From Alphaproteobacteria bacterium (GTDB lineage: Bacteria; Pseudomonadota; Alphaproteobacteria; Rhizobiales; Amorphaceae): DNA of 64,000 nucleotides. The notes under the pieces were generated by a model. It was given only the letters and a program-made list of their open reading frames with translations, did not search any database and was not told the DNA's origin. The DNA lies in NCBI GenBank assembly GCA_030431335.1, contig JAUIJH010000008.1, forward strand, positions 1 through 64,000. Direction: 5' to 3'. The stretch's first letter is position 1. Each line of letters opens with the position of its first letter. A program made the translations under genes and the position numbers. Positions 37,191-57,983 of the stretch are shown one piece after another.

Positions 37191-37934
37191 GGTCAACTCC
37201 TTTGTCTGAACTACAACCCATCAAGGCCCGCCGTTGGCGGCCGATCAATGGCGGCGACGGTCATCGTCCCCACTCTTCTCGCTAGACGGGGTAAATTGGT
37301 GAATCAGTGGTTACCGTCGCGGACGGGGGATGCTATCGATAGGCGGGCGCGCAGAGGAGAATACGACCTTGACTGTTGCATCGCCACAACGGATCCGGCA
37401 TACCGGCGCCTCTCAAATGCCGGCGGCGGCACACGCAGAAGTCGAGAAACCACAAGGGCTTTCACAGAATCCGTTGCAGAAATAGAACATTGACGCTCTT
37501 AGCGTAATGAGGCATCCCTGTGTTGGCCATAGTGATGCGCAATTGCAACGAGTCGCGTCTTCGGAGTTCTCTTGTCATCAAGGAATGTTACAAGGATATC
37601 CCGAACTAAAATCTGCCGATTTTTCAATGTTAATAATAAATAATAAGTCAAATCGGAGGGTGGCGTTACGAAGTCTATGAACTTCGTTCGTATTGGTGAG
37701 TGCGGCGCGAGGGTGTGGACATCCCAGCTTCGGGTCAGCCAACGGGACTATGAGTTGGTAACATTGAGTTGCGAGTGTGATTCGAAATCGTTAACCACGG
37801 CCATGCAAGTGTCATGGTTGACGAGTTGTAGAGTGGCGGCGCGATTGACAAGCACAACCATAGCCAGCATGACAGCTAAGGTTTGCGCCGCGAACACGTT
37901 GATGACGAACGAAAAAAAGGACGGCTCGCAGCAG
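37191..37934. other. Long gene-poor interval between gapR and the DUF1036 gene
   Basis: Seven hundred bases without a convincing gene, and clearly less GC-rich than its surroundings (the stretch 37600-37660 is largely A/T). The only frames (one of 81 codons at 37248-37493 and upstream extensions of the DUF1036 frame) have arginine/serine-rich, non-protein-like translations and weak ribosome sites. It must hold the gapR promoter. No tRNA-like cloverleaf, long repeat or terminator was seen. A small RNA cannot be excluded. Confidence 0.5.
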
Positions 37935-45373: not shown

Positions 45374-45799
45374 TCAAAACGGCTTGACGATCACGCAGAT
45401 CACGATGGCGATCATCAGCAGCGTCGGCACCTCGTTCATGAAGCGATAGAACCGCGCCGAGTGCCGGTTTTCGTCCTGCGCGAAGCCGCGCATCCAGCGT
45501 GCGCAGGCCATGTGCTGGGCCGACAGCGCCACCACGGCGGCCAACTTCAGGTGCAGCCACGGCTGGCTCCAGAAGTTGGCCTGGTAGGCGAGCGTCAGGC
45601 CGGTGATCCAGGCCACGATCATCGCCGGCGTGCCGATCGCCCGCAGCAGCCGCCGCTCCATCACCTTGAACGTCTCGGACTGGACCGAACCGGTTTCGGC
45701 CCCCGCGTGGTAGACGAAAAGTCGCGGCAGGTAGAGCAGCGCGGCCATCCACGAGATGATCGCCAGCACATGCAGCACCTTGACCCACAGGTAGGTCAC
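45374..45799 (-). CDS. hemJ: Protoporphyrinogen oxidase HemJ
   Basis: A 141-residue membrane protein with about four hydrophobic segments. It matches HemJ (UPF0093), which oxidises protoporphyrinogen IX in haem synthesis. The conserved histidine-containing start VKVLHVLAIISWMAALLYLPRLFVYHA and the WLHLKLAAVVALSAQH segment are present. The GTG start overlaps the hemE stop by 4 nt (GTGA). The open frame continues far upstream as a hemE shadow. Confidence 0.9.
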   Translation of the reverse strand: MTYLWVKVLHVLAIISWMAALLYLPRLFVYHAGAETGSVQSETFKVMERRLLRAIGTPAMIVAWITGLTLAYQANFWSQPWLHLKLAAVVALSAQHMACARWMRGFAQDENRHSARFYRFMNEVPTLLMIAIVICVIVKPF

Positions 45800-46833
45800 G
45801 CAGCGCTCGCCTTGAGCACGTCGATGGCGCGGGTCACGTTGTCGGGCGGCGTCTCCAGCGAGATGCCGTGGCCGAGATTGAACACGAACGGCCCGTCCCC
45901 CAGCGACTTGGCGATCCGCCGCACCGCCACGTCGAGCTGCTGCCCGCCTTCCTTGAGCCGCGCCGGATCGAGGTTGCCCTGCACGCAAACGCCCTTTCTC
46001 TGCAACGCCTTGGCTGCACTCATCGGAACCGTCCAGTCCAGCGACACGGCATCGACGCCTGTGCGCTTGACGAACTCTGCGTAGCCGAACCCGGCCCCCC
46101 GCGGGAAGCCGATAATCGGCACGCCGGGCGCTTGTGCCCGCACTCCACCGACGATGCGGGCAATGGGCTCGATGGACCAGCGCGCGAACGCCTTCTCGTC
46201 GAGCGCCGAGGCCCAGCTGTCGAAGATCTGCACCGCGTCCGCGCCCGCCTCGATCTGGGCCACGAGGTGCCGGATCGCCGCCTCGACCACGATGTCGATC
46301 AACGCCGCCATCTTGTCCGGCTCGCGGGCGGCGAAGGTGCGGGCCGGCCACTGGTCGAGCCCGCCGCGCCCGGCGATCATGTACGTCGCCAGCGTCCACG
46401 GCGCGCCGCAGAAGCCCAGCAGCGCCTTGTCCGGCGGCAGGATCGCGCGCACGCCGCGCACCGCCTCGTAGACCGGCGCCAGATGCTCATCGAACCCCTC
46501 GAAGCTGAGCCGGCCCGGATGGGTCAGCGGGTCGAGCCGCGGCCCCTCGCCCTCCACGAACCAGACCTTCTGGCCGAGCGCATGGGGCAGCACCAGGATG
46601 TCGGAGAAGATGATCGACGCATCGAAGGCGAAGCGGCGCATCGGCTGCATCGTCGCCTCGATGGCGAGCTCGGGCGTGTAGCAGAACTCGAGGAAGCTCC
46701 GGGCCTGCTTCCGCAACCCCCGGTACTCGGGCAGGTAGCGACCGGCCTGGCGCATGAACCAGACGGGCGCGGGCTTCACCGCCTCGCCAGCCAGAGCGCG
46801 CAGGAGGTCGGGTCGGTTCGGAGCTTTTTCCAT
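45796..46833 (-). CDS. hemE: Uroporphyrinogen decarboxylase
   Basis: A 345-residue cytoplasmic enzyme that decarboxylates uroporphyrinogen III to coproporphyrinogen III. The N-terminal signature PVWFMRQAGRYLPEYR and the conserved GFCGAPWTLATYM and HGISLETPPDNV segments are clear. The ATG at 46833 is preferred to an adjacent upstream TTG. It transcribes away from the probable replication origin, as in Caulobacter and Rickettsia. Confidence 0.95.
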   Translation of the reverse strand: MEKAPNRPDLLRALAGEAVKPAPVWFMRQAGRYLPEYRGLRKQARSFLEFCYTPELAIEATMQPMRRFAFDASIIFSDILVLPHALGQKVWFVEGEGPRLDPLTHPGRLSFEGFDEHLAPVYEAVRGVRAILPPDKALLGFCGAPWTLATYMIAGRGGLDQWPARTFAAREPDKMAALIDIVVEAAIRHLVAQIEAGADAVQIFDSWASALDEKAFARWSIEPIARIVGGVRAQAPGVPIIGFPRGAGFGYAEFVKRTGVDAVSLDWTVPMSAAKALQRKGVCVQGNLDPARLKEGGQQLDVAVRRIAKSLGDGPFVFNLGHGISLETPPDNVTRAIDVLKASAA

Positions 46834-47240
46834 CAAAACATCAGTTCTTATTTAAATAGGGTTGATGATGTTGTTGGGCGGTGATCGGCGGGGACAAGTG
46901 CGCCGTTCACAGGCAGGGGTCGCCCGTGCTGCGCGGGAGGCGCGACGAGGGAGTGTGAGTTCACATGTTTGTCTGCCGACCCGCAAGGGGCTAGAACGGG
47001 GCGGCGGCGCTGGCCGCGATCGCGTCAAGCCCGGCTTAACAAATCGGGCTTGCGTTGTGGAGGACGCAGCAGCAACCTTTGCCGGACCTTGTCATGTCCG
47101 GAGTCGCACAGGGTTTGTCCACGGCCAGGCGGAGGTGGACCCATCGGTGGATGAACGCGCATGCTGTCCACAGGGTTGCATGGGCCGACAGCCGGCGGCA
47201 CGAATTGTCCCAGTTTCATCCCCAAGCAGAAGGCAGGGCC
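46834..47240. other. Probable chromosomal replication origin (oriC)
   Basis: A 407-base gene-free interval between divergent hemE and the PPSR (RP001-like) gene, the same place as the Caulobacter origin. It holds an A/T-rich block beside hemE (46845-46858). Four DnaA-box-like 9-mers, each 7/9 to TTATCCACA, lie at 47056-47064 (minus), 47115-47123 (plus, TTGTCCACG), 47146-47154 (minus) and 47164-47172 (plus, CTGTCCACA). A GANTC methylation site lies at 47101 and a TGTGA-GT-TCACA dyad at 46954-46965. Origin function is inferred from context, not proven. Confidence 0.65.
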
Positions 47241-48098
47241 GTGAACCGCAAACGCACATTCGTGCACGTCCATCTGGTCTCCGATTCCACCGGCGAGACG
47301 CTGATGACCGCTTCGCGCGCCGCCGTCGCCCGCTACGAGGAAGTGGAGGCGATCGAGCATATCTACCCGCTCGTGCGCTCCGACCGGCAGATCGACCGCG
47401 TCATTTCCGAGATCGAGGAAGCGCCGGGCATCGTGATGTTCACGCTCGTCGACCCCACCATCCTGGAGCGGCTGCAACAAAAATGCGGCGAGCTGGGCCT
47501 GCCCTGCATCGACGTGCTCGACCCGCTGGTCGCCGTCTTCCAGTCCTACCTCAACGTCCAGAAGGCGGCCCGCATCGGCGCGCAGCACGAGCTGGACGCC
47601 AGCTATTTCCGCCGCATCGAGGCGCTCAATTTCGCCATGCGCCATGACGACGGCGCGCTGCCGGACGATATCGACGAGGCCGACGTGGTGCTCGTCGGCG
47701 TCTCGCGCACCTCCAAGACGCCGACCTCCATCTACCTCGCCAATCGCGGCGTGCGGGCGACCAACCTGCCCATCGTCACCGAGCTTGCCCTGCCGCCCAA
47801 CCTGTTCGAGGCCAAGCGCGCGCTGGTGGTGGGCCTCACCGCCTCGCCGGACCGGATCGTCGCGCTGCGCGAGAACCGCCTCCTCACCATGAACGCGGAC
47901 AAGCAGCACCGCGCGTCGTCCTACGTGAACCGGCAGGAGGTGGCCAAGGAAGTCGCCTTCGCGCGCAAGCTGTGCGCGGAGAACGGCTGGCCGCTGATCG
48001 ACGTGTCGCGCCGCTCCATCGAGGAGACGGCCGCCGCGATCATGGCGCTCCTGACCCACCGGCGCTACGGCTCGGGCCTGGCGGAAAACTACGAATGA
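47241..48098 (+). CDS. Pyruvate phosphate dikinase / PEP synthase regulatory protein (PPSR, DUF299)
   Basis: A 285-residue bifunctional kinase/pyrophosphorylase of the PPSR family, which inactivates and reactivates PPDK or PEP synthase by threonine phosphorylation. It has the phosphate-binding motif GVSRTSKTPTSIYLA (about residues 150-165) and the N-terminal VHLVSDSTGETL segment. It is homologous to RP001 of the Rickettsia origin region. The GTG at 47241 follows AAGGCAGGG; the upstream frame is not conserved-looking. It overlaps aroE by 4 nt. Confidence 0.9.
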   Translation: MNRKRTFVHVHLVSDSTGETLMTASRAAVARYEEVEAIEHIYPLVRSDRQIDRVISEIEEAPGIVMFTLVDPTILERLQQKCGELGLPCIDVLDPLVAVFQSYLNVQKAARIGAQHELDASYFRRIEALNFAMRHDDGALPDDIDEADVVLVGVSRTSKTPTSIYLANRGVRATNLPIVTELALPPNLFEAKRALVVGLTASPDRIVALRENRLLTMNADKQHRASSYVNRQEVAKEVAFARKLCAENGWPLIDVSRRSIEETAAAIMALLTHRRYGSGLAENYE

Positions 48099-52327: not shown

Positions 52328-53617
52328 ATGTCATCTGAGACAATTGTGGCATTGTCCTCCGGTCCGCCACCCAGCGGCATCGCCGTGATCCGGGTGAGCG
52401 GCGCGGAGGCGGCGGCAGTGGCGGCGGCCTTCGGTGCCGGCGATCTCGCGCCGCGCCGGGCCACCTTGCGCCCGCTGACGGCGCCGAGCGACGGCGAGCT
52501 GATCGACCACGCGCTGTGCCTGTTTTTCCGCGGCCCTGCCAGCGCCACCGGCGAGGACGTGGTGGAGTTTCATTGCCACGGCAGCCCGGCGGTGGTCGAC
52601 CGCATTCTCGCCGAGGCGGTGGCGTTGCCGCAAGTGCGCGCGGCCGAGGCGGGCGAATTCACCATGCGGGCGGTGTTCAGCGGCTGCATGGACCTCGCGG
52701 ACGCCGAATCGCTGGCCGACCTGATCGATGCCCGCACCGAGGCCGAACGGCGCCGGGCGCTGCGGCTGTCGCAAGGCGCGCTGTCGCAGCGCCTGGCGGA
52801 TTGGCGCGCCCGCCTGATCACGGTGCTGTCGCTGTGCGAGGCCCACATCGATTTCGCCGACGAGAGCGACGTGCCCGACGGTGGACCGCCCGTGGATGCG
52901 GCGACGGGGCCGATAGCGGACGAAATCGCTGCTGCCCTGCTCGGCAGCCGCGATGCGGACAAGCTGACGGATGGCTTCCGCATCGTGCTGGTGGGCCCGC
53001 CCAACGCGGGCAAGTCGAGCCTGATCAATGCCTTGGCTGGGCGGCGGGTGGCGCTCGTCAGCGACGAGGCGGGAACCACGCGCGATGTGGTTTCGGTCAC
53101 GCTCGACCTCGGCGGCTATCGCGCCGTGGTGTCGGACACGGCGGGGGTTCGCGAGGCGGCGGCCGGCATCGAGGCGTTGGGCATCGCCCGCACGCGCGAG
53201 GAACTCGCCGGGGCCGACTTCGTGGTCGAGGTGCGCAGCGCCGATACCGTCCCGCTTTGCCTGGACGAGGCCGACCTGGTGGTGGGCCATAAGGCCGACG
53301 TGGCGCCCGTCGCAGGCGCGGATCTCGCCACCGGCCTGGCGGACGGTGCCAGCATCGAGGCCTTGGCGCGGCGCCTGTCGGAGGCGACGGCCGCTGGTCT
53401 GCAAGGCGCGGAGCATGCCCTGGTCACGCGCGCGCGCCAGCGTTCGGCGCTGACGCAGGTGGCCGATGCGCTTGCCGATGCGCTGGCGACGCCCCACCTG
53501 GAGCTGAAGGCGGAGGCGCTGCGGGCGGCCTGCCGGGCGATCGGGCGGCTGACCGGCGACATCGATGTCGAGGAAATTCTCGATGATGTTTTCGGGCGCT
53601 TCTGCATCGGCAAGTAG
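52328..53617 (+). CDS. mnmE: tRNA modification GTPase MnmE
   Basis: A 429-residue GTPase that with MnmG installs the 5-carboxymethylaminomethyl group on wobble uridine of certain tRNAs. The N-terminal THF-binding domain starts [22 protein letters not shown]. The inserted G domain has G1 [10 protein letters not shown]2 EAGTTRD and G3 DTAGVRE; G4 reads HKAD rather than NKxD. The C-terminus ends FCIGK, the catalytic cysteine motif. It is followed by a parS site and mnmG. Confidence 0.93.
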
Positions 53618-53620
53618 CGA

Positions 53621-53636
53621 TGTTTCACGTGAAACA
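53621..53636. promoter_or_regulatory. parS: parS centromere site 1
   Basis: A perfect 16-bp palindrome TGTTTCACGTGAAACA, identical to the consensus chromosomal parS bound by ParB. It begins four bases after the mnmE stop codon and about 3.5 kb upstream of parB. Confidence 0.96.
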
Positions 53637-53727
53637 TTGCCGCTGAGGTGCCGGCGCGGCGGCGGCTTGACAGAGCCGGTCGCAGTCGAGTTGATCCTGG
53701 CGCAATGAACCTGGCGGATCGGGTCGG

Positions 53728-55587
53728 ATGGCGATGTTTCACGTGAAACACGATGTGGTGGTGGTCGGTGGCGGGCACGCGGGCTGCGAGGCTGCGGCCG
53801 CTGCGGCGCGTGCCGGCGCGCGCGTTGCGCTGGTCACGCTCGACCCGGCGGCCATCGGGCGGCTGTCGTGCAACCCGGCTATCGGCGGCATCGGCAAGGG
53901 CCACCTCGTGCGCGAGGTCGATGCGCTCGACGGCGTGATGGGCCGCGTCGCTGACCGTGCCGGCATCCAGTTTCGCCTCCTCAACCGAAGCCGTGGCCCG
54001 GCCGTGCGCGGCCCCCGCGCGCAGGTGGACCGGGCCGCCTATCTCGGCGCCATGCAGCAGCTCCTCGCCGCGGAGCCCAATATCGAGGTCGTCGCCGGTG
54101 AGGTCACCGACCTCGTGGTGCGGGACGGTGCCGTTGCCGGGGTGACGCTCGGGAGCGGCGAGGTGCTGGCGGCCGGCGCGGTGGTCCTCACGACGGGCAC
54201 CTTCCTTGCCGGGATGATCCACCTGGGCCAGCGGCATTGGCCGGCCGGGCGGATGGGCGAGGCAGCGGCATCGCGTCTCGCGGCCCGGCTCGCCGTCTTG
54301 GCGCTGCCCCTGGGCCGGCTGAAGACCGGCACGCCGCCGCGCCTTTCCGCCGCGAGCATCGATTTCGCCGTGCTGGACGAGCAGCCAGGCGATGCCGAGC
54401 CGAGCTTCTTCGCCGAGGACACGCAGCGCGCCGCCCTGCCCCAGCGGCCGTGCCACATCACCCGCACCACGACCGCGACCCACGCGCTGATCCGCGACAA
54501 TCTCGGCCAGTCGGCCATGTACAGCGGCAACATCACCGGTGTCGGGCCGCGCTACTGCCCGTCGATCGAGGACAAGGTGGTGCGGTTCGCCGACCGCGAA
54601 AGCCACCAGATCTTCCTCGAGCCCGAGGGCCTCGATTCCGATCTGATCTATCCCAACGGCATCTCCAACTCGCTGCCGGAGGATGTGCAGCTGGCGATGG
54701 TGCGCTCGATGCCGGGCCTGGAGCGCGCCGAGATCGTGCAGCCCGGCTATGCCATCGAGTACGACTTCATCGATCCGCGCGCGCTGGACCGGACGCTCGA
54801 ATTGCAGGCCCTGCCGCGCCTTTTCCTCGCCGGCCAGATCAACGGCACCACCGGCTATGAGGAGGCGGCGGCGCAGGGGCTGATCGCTGGGCTCAACGCG
54901 GCGCGGCGGGCGAGCGGCGCGGACGGCGTGACGCTGTCGCGGACGGATGCCTATATCGGTGTGCTGGTGGACGATCTCGTCGCCAACGGCGTCGACGAGC
55001 CCTATCGCATGTTCACCTCGCGCGCGGAGCATCGGCTGTCGCTGCGGGCCGACAACGCGGCGGACCGGCTGACGGCGTGGGGCATCGCTCATGGCCTGGT
55101 GGGCGCCGAGCGGGCGGCCGCCTTCGCGCGGCGCAGCGCGTGCCTGGCCGAGGCGGAAGCGGCGCTGGCGTCGCTCTCGTTCACGCCGCAGGACGCGGCG
55201 GTGCATGGCGTGCGGTTCAAGCTGGACGGCCGCCGGCGCGACGGGTTCGACATCCTGGCGCACGACGATGGTGGCTGGCCGGCCGTCGAGCGCCTGCTGC
55301 CCGGGCTCGGCGCGTTCCCGGCGTCGGTGCGCGAGACGCTCTACGCGGCGTCCCTCTACCGCGTCCATACCGCGCGCCAGGCCAAGGAATCGGCGCTGGA
55401 CGCGGCGGCTGAGGCGCTGGCCATCCCCGCCGCGCTGGTCGAGGCGCCGATCCCCGGCCTGTCGAACGAGCTGCAGCAGAAGCTGTTGCGGCGCCGTCCG
55501 CGCACCATCGCCGAAGCCCGCCGCATCTCCGGCATGACCCCGGCCGGCCTCGCCCTGCTGGTGGCGCACGCCCGCCGCGCCGCCTGA
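53728..55587 (+). CDS. mnmG: tRNA uridine 5-carboxymethylaminomethyl modification enzyme MnmG (GidA)
   Basis: A 619-residue FAD-dependent partner of MnmE. The FAD motif [19 protein letters not shown] is at the N-terminus, with [20 protein letters not shown] and [30 protein letters not shown] further on, and [16 protein letters not shown] and FTSRAEHRL in the C-terminal half. The N-terminal MFHVKH is encoded by the second parS site. The start is at the ATG at 53728 or two codons later at 53734. Confidence 0.94.
53735..53750. promoter_or_regulatory. parS: parS centromere site 2, inside the mnmG start
   Basis: A second perfect copy of TGTTTCACGTGAAACA, 114 bp from the first. It lies in the coding sequence for residues 3-8 of MnmG, so the peptide MFHVKH is a by-product of the site. 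Confidence 0.96.
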
Positions 55588-56304: not shown

Positions 56305-57095
56305 ATGCTGCCTGGCCGCCCACGCGTCATCGCCGTCGCCAACCAGAAGGGTGGCGTCGGCAAGACGACCACCGCGATCAACACCGCCACCGCCCTCGCC
56401 GCGCTCGGCGAGGAGGTGCTGCTGATCGACCTCGACCCGCAGGGCAACGCGTCGACCGGGCTCGGCATCGACCCCGCCGACCGCGAGACGTCGACCTACG
56501 ACGTGCTGACCAAGTCGGCCACGCTGGTGGAAGCCATCAAGGCGACGGAGGTGCCGCACCTTTCCATCGCGCCGGCGACGATGGATCTCCTGTCCATCGA
56601 CATCGAGCTCAGCACCGCGTCCGACCGCGCGTTGCGGCTGCGCCAGGCCGTCGCCGGGCTGCCGCAGGACCGGCGGCCGCATTATGTGGTGATCGACTGC
56701 CCGCCCTCGCTCACCATGCTGACGGTGAACGCGCTCGCCGCCGCGCACGCCATCCTGTGCCCGCTGCAGTGCGAGTTCTTCGCCATGGAGGGGCTGTCGC
56801 AGCTCATGCGCACCATCGCCGAGGTGCGCGAGAGCCTGAACCCCGAGCTCCGGATGCATGGCATCGTGCTGACCATGTACGACGCGCGCAACAACCTCGC
56901 GAACCAGGTGGTGGCCGACGTGCGCGCCACCATGGGCGACCTCGTGTACGAGACGATGATCCCCCGCAACGTGCGCCTGTCGGAGGCGCCGTCCTACGGC
57001 AAGCCGGCGCTGCTCTACGACCTCAAATGCGCAGGCAGCCAGGCCTATCTGCGCCTGGTGTCGGAGCTGATCGACCGCGAACACAAGATGGGAGC

Positions 57096-57099
<4 letters not shown>
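56305..57099 (+). CDS. parA: Chromosome partitioning ATPase ParA
   Basis: A 264-residue deviant-Walker ATPase that segregates the origin region with ParB. It has the deviant Walker A ANQKGGVGKTTTAIN, LLIDLDPQGNASTGLG (A' motif), and the Walker B region VVIDCPPSLTMLTVNAL. It overlaps parB by 4 nt (ATGA). Confidence 0.95.

Positions 57100-57983
<884 letters not shown>

What the first reader, a model, noticed from the sequence alone, without database searches (positions are those of the whole stretch)
46834..47240. Likely oriC between hemE and the RP001/PPSR gene
The 407-base divergent interval matches the Caulobacter/Rickettsia origin neighbourhood (hemE-RP001). It contains an A/T block next to hemE and four DnaA-box-like 9-mers, each 7/9 to the E. 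coli consensus, two per strand, clustered in about 120 bases (47056-47172). The parS-parAB locus lies 6-10 kb away. None of the boxes is perfect, so the origin would rely on weak or lineage-specific boxes.
Basis: partly seen in the sequence, partly recalled or inferred. Interest (0 to 1): 0.75.

Follow-up and report, generated by a model that had tools for sequence, protein, structure and literature searches.

The report
Chromosome replication origin beside hemE
This stretch is almost certainly where an Acuticoccus bacterium starts copying its chromosome; the location is the usual one for its relatives, but the three-letter repeat where the DNA should open lacks the run of adenine-centred units that the best-studied initiator protein prefers.

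Summary
The genome belongs to Acuticoccus (Hyphomicrobiales). The divergent gap is present in 86 of 89 loci examined. In two near-complete relatives, GC skew and GGGNAGGG strand bias switch at this locus at coarse scale, while dnaA lies 0.7-1.5 Mb away. So this is very probably oriC of the known hemE-RP001 kind.

The module occurs once per genome in 8 of 8 Acuticoccus and in none of 33 other relatives. It resembles the DnaA-trio module of Bacillus subtilis, but in no species does any register give three adenine centres in a row, and the DnaA residue that reads that adenine (Asn187) is Tyr or Phe in 50 of 53 alphaproteobacterial DnaAs. The location is ordinary; the deviant array is new detail, functionally untested.

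The parts
45796..46833 (-). hemE, uroporphyrinogen decarboxylase, left boundary gene
   Evidence: Pfam URO-D 7e-109
46837..46859 (.). A/T-rich block, outer part of the presumed DNA unwinding element
   Evidence: first 45 nt of the gap 62% A+T against 35% for the rest; alignment of 8 species
46863..46877 (+). DnaA-trio-like array TGA TGA TGT TGT TGG, five period-3 units
   Evidence: T in register in 40 of 40 units over 8 species, second base G 36 and T 4; only such run in the window; module once per genome
46878..46888 (.). 11-nt spacer at the place where order-mates have the DUE-proximal box GTGGATTA; degenerate here
46889..46897 (-). conserved weak DnaA-box-like site TTGTCCCCG (CGGGGACAA on +), 6/9; CGGGGA in 8 of 8 species
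47056..47064 (-). DnaA-box-like TCCTCCACA, 7/9; GTGG invariant in the genus alignment
47115..47123 (+). DnaA-box-like TTGTCCACG, 7/9
47146..47154 (-). DnaA-box-like TCATCCACC, 7/9
47164..47172 (+). DnaA-box-like CTGTCCACA, 7/9
47216..47224 (+).
47241..48095 (+). PPSR / RP001 / COG1806 (Kinase-PPPase), right boundary gene
   Evidence: Pfam PF03618 6e-92
53621..53636 (+). parS, perfect TGTTTCACGTGAAACA
53735..53750 (+). parS, perfect TGTTTCACGTGAAACA
56305..57096 (+). parA
   Evidence: AAA_31 3.5e-55
56757..57980 (+). parB (ORF span; it overlaps parA, so the true start is likely downstream)
   Evidence: ParB_N 3e-36 from residue 153 on, HTH_ParB 8e-33

Best explanation
The interval 46834-47240 is the chromosomal origin (oriC) of an Acuticoccus species. 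DnaA binds a set of weak boxes in its PPSR-side half (47056-47224) and the conserved CGGGGA site at 46889. From that site a DnaA oligomer spreads 5'-ward on the + strand over the five trinucleotides at 46863-46877, stretches that strand and melts the adjoining A/T block next to hemE. The ParB-parS complex 6-11 kb to the right then segregates the duplicated origin. Shown here: gene neighbourhood, box excess, conservation and spacing of the module, coarse strand asymmetry in two relatives. Inferred: all protein binding and the unwinding step.
For: Box cluster 5 versus 0.57 expected, unique in 64 kb; over 83 distinct gaps the mean is 4.87 boxes versus 0.84 in one shuffle of each, none with zero. 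Divergent hemE-PPSR gap in 86 of 89 loci, 297-700 nt. GC skew of G007 (C1, 4.9 Mb): negative in all 9 sampled 20-kb stretches starting at 0-1.60 Mb (two of them near zero), positive in 8 of 9 starting at 1.68-3.90 Mb, weakly negative at 4.3 and 4.7 Mb; hemE is at 1.646 Mb, its antipode at 4.118 Mb. G004: the 10 stretches left of hemE are zero or negative, 7 of 9 from there to 4.7 Mb are positive, 5.1 Mb is negative. GGGNAGGG (the E. coli KOPS motif, recalled) changes strand at the same place: G007 forward/reverse 7/31 left, 16/3 right, 2/6 at 4.3 and 4.7 Mb; G004 6/26 left, 19/7 right, 0/3 at 5.1 Mb. Period-3 module in 8 of 8 species; the same layout was recovered without supervision in order-mates, with the T register there significant by box-only anchoring (0 of 5000 for 41 gaps; 0 of 5000 for 36 after thinning). 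Marker frequency in Hyphomonas neptunium peaks close to hemE, with parAB about 7 kb away and two perfect parS (PMC6650430, section 6 read).
Against: No experiment in this genus was found or run. The local cumulative-skew minimum does not sit on the gap (3.7, 13.8 and -72 kb away); one G007 stretch (2.75 Mb) and two G004 stretches (2.43, 3.10 Mb) have the wrong sign. Boxes are weak: none above 7/9 in this species, only one 7/9 site in L008. The DUE-proximal box of order-mates (GTGGATTA) is eroded in Acuticoccus. No CtrA full site (TTAA-N7-TTAA) in 7 of 8 species, the window species included.
Confidence: 0.94

Rival explanations
1. The origin lies at the gidA/parS region (about 53.6 kb), as Ori-Finder proposed for Bradyrhizobiaceae; the hemE gap is only a promoter region.
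For: Ori-Finder (PMC2275245, passages) placed Bradyrhizobiaceae oriC next to gidA, near the GC-disparity switch, using TGTTTCACG as the DnaA box. The same palindrome occurs at 53621 and 53735 here. The window's local skew minimum (50546) lies between hemE and gidA.
Against: That palindrome is the parS site bound by ParB in vitro in Hyphomonas. There is no DnaA-box-like site of at least 7/9 in 53300-54000. The conserved box cluster and period-3 module are at hemE.
Confidence: 0.03
2. The origin lies beside dnaA, as in many other bacteria.
For: dnaA-adjacent origins are common (general knowledge).
Against: dnaA is on another contig (C193). It is 0.70 Mb from hemE in G007 and 1.47 Mb in G004; the sampled stretches on either side of it (2.1 and 2.4 Mb in G007, 3.5 and 3.9 Mb in G004) all have positive skew. 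Boxes of at least 7/9 on the dnaA contig are scattered, 10 in 8.3 kb.
Confidence: 0.02
3. The gap is oriC, but the period-3 array is not a DnaA-trio: on the other strand it reads (CAA/CAT)n and could be an unstructured leader of hemE mRNA or a site for another protein.
For: The array starts 29 nt upstream of the hemE start codon and would be in its leader if transcription starts further out. It departs from the published central-A rule.
Against: Fixed 11-nt spacing to the CGGGGA box in 7 of 8 species (12 in the eighth). The same neighbourhood of DnaA boxes carries T-N-G units, including TAG repeats of the canonical kind, in other alphaproteobacteria. Strand and polarity agree with the 5'-tail rule.
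Confidence: 0.25

Closest known systems
Caulobacter crescentus Cori and Rickettsia prowazekii origin (hemE / CC0001-RP001, COG1806)
   Same: Same boundary genes, A/T block, several DnaA boxes, most of them weak in Cori (PMC1914354 passages; PMC8959179 passages).
   Different: No CtrA full sites here; Cori has five. The IHF site was not tested. The core sequences were not aligned with each other.
Hyphomonas neptunium origin
   Same: Origin near hemE by marker frequency, parAB about 7 kb away, two perfect parS (PMC6650430, section 6 read).
   Different: Core sequence not compared.
Basal unwinding system (BUS: DnaA-boxes plus DnaA-trios) of Bacillus subtilis
   Same: Box, short spacer and trinucleotide array in the same order and strand polarity, next to an A/T block; T-first units; the guanine-contacting Glu228 is conserved in 53 of 53.
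   Different: Unit centres not A in runs of three in any register; the adenine-reading Asn187 is Tyr; Arg202 is Lys; the proximal box is weak (6/9) and its expected tandem partner is degenerate.

Membership tests
Alphaproteobacterial hemE-RP001 origin | Gap between divergent hemE and COG1806 (PPSR) | tested here: met
Alphaproteobacterial hemE-RP001 origin | Cluster of DnaA boxes beyond chance | tested here: met
   5 sites versus 0.57, 0 of 2000 shuffles
Alphaproteobacterial hemE-RP001 origin | A/T-rich region within the gap | tested here: met
Alphaproteobacterial hemE-RP001 origin | Strand-asymmetry switch at the locus | tested here: inconclusive
   Clear at the coarse scale in G007, weaker in G004, supported by GGGNAGGG bias; local cumulative minima 3.7, 13.8 and -72 kb away. 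The draft genome itself (285 contigs) cannot be tested as a whole.
Alphaproteobacterial hemE-RP001 origin | CtrA sites TTAA-N7-TTAA (Caulobacter type) | tested here: not met
   0 in the window species, present in 1 of 8 genus gaps. Not treated as defining for the whole class: some related origins in PMC1914354 have none.
Alphaproteobacterial hemE-RP001 origin | IHF site | not tested
   no scan was made
Alphaproteobacterial hemE-RP001 origin | Replication starts here in vivo; autonomous replication of the fragment | not testable with these tools
   needs marker-frequency sequencing or an ori-plasmid
DnaA-trio / BUS | Period-3 single-strand motif at fixed distance from a DnaA box, on the strand whose 5' tail leaves the box | tested here: met
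   40 of 40 T in register over 8 species, permutation maximum 31; one copy per genome
DnaA-trio / BUS | At least three consecutive NAN units (published search rule) | tested here: not met
   longest run of A centres in any register is 2 in 8 of 8 species or fewer; L006 and L008 arrays contain no A (rule)
DnaA-trio / BUS | DnaA box with at most 2 mismatches within 16 bp of the trios | tested here: not met
   the adjacent site at 46889 matches 6 of 9
DnaA-trio / BUS | DnaA residues of the dinucleotide pocket (Asn187, Arg202, Glu228) | tested here: inconclusive
   Glu228 kept; Arg202 is Lys; Asn187 is Tyr. The 2023 paper itself says none of these is universally conserved.
DnaA-trio / BUS | Array needed for DnaA-driven strand separation | not testable with these tools
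   needs in vitro assay

The most novel reading that the evidence does not exclude
Acuticoccus opens its origin on a natural DnaA-trio array without the central adenine (TGA/TGT/TGG, equivalently TTG/ATG units). Alphaproteobacteria in general may have relaxed or changed the central-base rule together with replacement of the adenine-reading Asn187 of DnaA by Tyr or Phe. [quoted passage not shown]
Probability: 0.5. Interest if true: 0.62.

Novelty: new variant of a known kind. Interest (0 to 1): 0.42.

Why it matters
As an origin it is ordinary and adds one more genus to a known rule. The point of interest is the unwinding element. In B. subtilis, G or T in place of the central adenine of the trios impairs strand separation and origin activity, while C largely replaces it, because an amino group on that base contacts Asn187 (PMC10721633, passages). 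Here, at what looks like their origin, all eight species lack a run of three adenine centres, in two of them the array has no adenine at all, and their DnaA has Tyr in place of Asn187. If confirmed, this gives a natural experiment on how DnaA and origin sequence co-evolve, and one reason why the published BUS search found no trios in 15% of origins.

Tried and rejected
Origin beside dnaA and origin at gidA/parS: rejected (see rivals). CtrA-regulated origin of Caulobacter type: no full CtrA site. Local cumulative skew as a fine locator: rejected, since minima scatter by up to 72 kb. A central-A trio on the opposite strand (CAA/CAT units): rejected because published trios sit on the 5' tail leaving the box, which is the + strand here; the B. 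subtilis strand layout itself is recalled. Co-variation of residue 187 with the trio centre across the class: not shown. The single Asn187 species (G260) does have two TAG units next to its box, but species with Tyr or Phe have TAG units too.

Results against the deviant-trio reading. In L003-L005, three close species, the third register (units TCT GAT GAT TCT GAT and alike) gives A or C centres in 5, 5 and 4 units in a row, and C was tolerated in B. subtilis, so for these three a B. subtilis-type reading is not excluded. The T-register test failed for the 34 non-order alphas with box-only anchors (difference -0.032, 3652 of 5000); their T-N-G consensus comes from an alignment fitted to the motif and has no held-out test. 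With box-only anchors Acuticoccus alone gave 168 of 5000; the 40-of-40 result uses CGGGGA as anchor, with the spacing set to 12 by hand for L008. Only 52 of 83 gaps fell at the same place when re-anchored by box columns alone, 26 of 36 in the thinned order set. The pattern was written from the eight genus sequences, so only its copy number and its absence elsewhere are informative.

Samples and omissions. The 89 loci were the best-scoring matches (30, 11, 19 and 29), the window's own included and three of them duplicates, not a random draw. Five near-identical order rows (L081, L083, L086, L088, L093) were dropped (thinned tests) but kept. GANTC counts used only gaps whose motif lay in the first 160 nt (8 of 8, 38 of 41, 29 of 34). 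Fourteen of 67 DnaA loci gave no frame with my Walker-A pattern and were left out (53 used); DnaA-like side matches were left out too. The residue columns printed were off by one; one search replaces them. The family accession was a wrong guess and served only to learn the genome handle. IHF sites were not tested.

Full report
What was checked. The window is the first 64,000 bases of a 70,284-bp contig (C145) of a 285-contig draft genome. Its nearest named relatives by the PPSR protein are Acuticoccus kalidii, A. yangtzensis and A. mangrovi at 84-88% identity; Acuticoccus is in the order Hyphomicrobiales. hemE (45796-46833, minus) and PPSR/RP001 (from 47241, plus) are confirmed by Pfam. To the left lie a UPF0093 protein and rho, to the right aroE, then mnmE, gidA, gidB, parA and parB. 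Two perfect parS sites are at 53621 and 53735.

The boxes are real and more than chance. Shuffles of the same bases give 0.57 on average, and none of 2000 reaches five; the region is the densest in the window. The same excess holds across 83 distinct hemE-PPSR gaps (mean 4.87 versus 0.84 in one shuffle of each, none with zero). These come from 89 loci, the window's own included, of which 86 have the divergent pair and 3 lack hemE in the fetched stretch. The 89 are the best-scoring matches, not a random draw. In the wider samples 127 of 150 order genomes and 78 of 114 class genomes have a PPSR match at all.

Position on the chromosome. The draft cannot be tested whole, so I sampled two near-complete Acuticoccus genomes. 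In G007 the GC skew is negative in each of the nine sampled 20-kb stretches that start between 0 and 1.60 Mb (-0.001 to -0.044). It is positive in eight of the nine that start between 1.68 and 3.90 Mb (the exception is 2.75 Mb) and weakly negative at 4.3 and 4.7 Mb; hemE is at 1.646 Mb and its antipode at 4.118 Mb. G004 agrees less cleanly: ten stretches left of hemE are zero or negative, seven of nine to the right are positive. GGGNAGGG, the KOPS motif of E. coli (recalled), switches strand at the same place: forward/reverse 7/31 left and 16/3 right in G007, 6/26 and 19/7 in G004, turning back beyond the antipode in both. The fine-scale cumulative minimum does not fall on the gap: it is 3.7 kb off in the window contig, 13.8 kb off in G007 and 72 kb off in G004. 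dnaA is 0.70 Mb away in G007 and 1.47 Mb in G004, with positive skew in the sampled stretches on both sides of it. In Hyphomonas neptunium, where skew, dnaA and DnaA sites gave no clear answer, marker frequency put the origin close to hemE, with parAB about 7 kb away and two perfect parS sites, much as here (PMC6650430, section 6 read). The hemE-COG1806 origin of Caulobacter and Rickettsia is long established (PMC1914354, passages).

The unwinding core. Aligning the gap from eight Acuticoccus species shows that most of it varies freely. At the hemE side, though, all eight keep an A/T-rich start, then five trinucleotides, then 11 bases (12 in L008), then CGGGGA. In the window these are 46863-46877 (TGA TGA TGT TGT TGG) and 46889-46897 (CGGGGACAA, that is TTGTCCCCG on the minus strand, a 6/9 DnaA box). 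Counting back from CGGGGA, T stands at the first place of all 40 units; shuffling the bases within each array never exceeds 31 in 20,000 trials. The second place is G in 36 units and T in 4, never A or C. A pattern written from these sequences matches exactly once in each of the eight genus genomes and in none of 33 other relatives. Within the window such a run occurs only here.

The layout is shared beyond the genus. An unsupervised motif search over all 83 gaps finds the module near the hemE end in most of them. In the 41 other order gaps the T-first register is significant when sequences are anchored on the box alone (0 of 5000 random registers; also 0 of 5000 for the 36 left after thinning), although only 52 of 83 gaps overall re-anchor at the same place by the box alone. 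The order consensus ends in GGTGGATTACCGGGAT, two co-oriented box-like sites; Acuticoccus has lost the first and keeps the second as CGGGGA. In the 34 other alphaproteobacterial gaps the fitted consensus reads T-N-G units five bases before TGT; in the model the centre is most often G in three of five units, A in one and T in one, with A at 15-40%. Their register failed the box-only test, so this part is descriptive.

How it probably works. [quoted passage not shown] In B. subtilis the guanine and the central adenine are captured by a pocket that includes Arg202, Glu228 and Asn187; central G or T impairs the origin, central C is tolerated (PMC10721633, passages). The Acuticoccus arrays break the central-adenine rule: in the T-first register the centres are G or T, one base over they are all T, and in the remaining register no species has more than two A centres in a row; L006 and L008 have no A in the array. 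Against this, in L003-L005 that third register gives A or C centres in five, five and four units in a row, which B. subtilis DnaA might accept. The matching DnaA position in this genome is Tyr (alignment to 8btg). Across the 53 alphaproteobacterial DnaAs that could be read (of 67 loci) the residue is Tyr in 43, Phe in 7, and Asn, Ser and Arg in one each; it is Tyr in 8 of 8 Acuticoccus; Arg202 is Lys in all 53 and Glu228 is kept in all 53. I infer that alphaproteobacterial DnaA reads the trio centre differently from B. subtilis DnaA, and that Acuticoccus is a natural case. That inference is untested; the array could instead be a leader element of hemE mRNA.

Family and novelty. As an origin this is a further member of the hemE-RP001 kind. 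As a BUS it fails two published search criteria (three NAN units; a box with at most two mismatches nearby), so I do not file it as a canonical BUS, although it is built like one. The 2021 BUS paper wrote that deviant trios without the middle adenine may exist. In the held library I found no description of trios in Alphaproteobacteria: a search for 'DnaA-trio' with 'oriC' gave 40 papers, of which I saw the listing of 20, and 'DnaA-trio' with 'Caulobacter' and 'alphaproteobacteri' gave one paper, on Epsilonproteobacteria, seen in the listing only. The 2021 survey covered DoriC origins of all classes, so alphaproteobacterial trios may be listed in its supplementary tables, which I could not open; subscription papers were not searched.

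Noticed in passing
46837-46877 and the same place in related loci: GANTC (the CcrM methylation site) is enriched from the hemE end through the array: 62 sites versus 15.2 in shuffles, in 34 of 38 order gaps outside the genus (52 sites in 29 of 33 after thinning); 8 versus 2.1, in 6 of 8 Acuticoccus species; not clearly in other alphas (16 versus 11.8, 29 gaps). The window species has none there (one at 47101), although its genome encodes a RAMA-domain protein as CcrM does. Several GANTC motifs in the C. crescentus origin are already noted in print (PMC3973325, passages).
   Followed up: partly
53621-53636 and 53735-53750: Ori-Finder (PMC2275245, passages) took TGTTTCACG, half of the palindrome TGTTTCACGTGAAACA, as the DnaA box of Bradyrhizobiaceae and put their oriC next to gidA; that palindrome is the parS site. 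Database origins for that family may therefore be parS misread as oriC; I did not examine any named Bradyrhizobiaceae genome.
   Followed up: partly
46959-46966: A conserved GTTCACA(T/C) element between the A/T block and the boxes, in 7 of 8 Acuticoccus gaps; it is not among the 7/9 boxes and is unexplained.
   Followed up: no
L072 (G006:C3): One Acuticoccus genome encodes a second, divergent DnaA-like protein whose C-terminal DNA-binding motif looks intact (PF00308 E 1.7e-23).
   Followed up: no
37607-37646: The A/T-richest 40-mer of the window (17.5% GC) lies just upstream of the ORF at 37677 (DUF1036), not at the origin.
   Followed up: no
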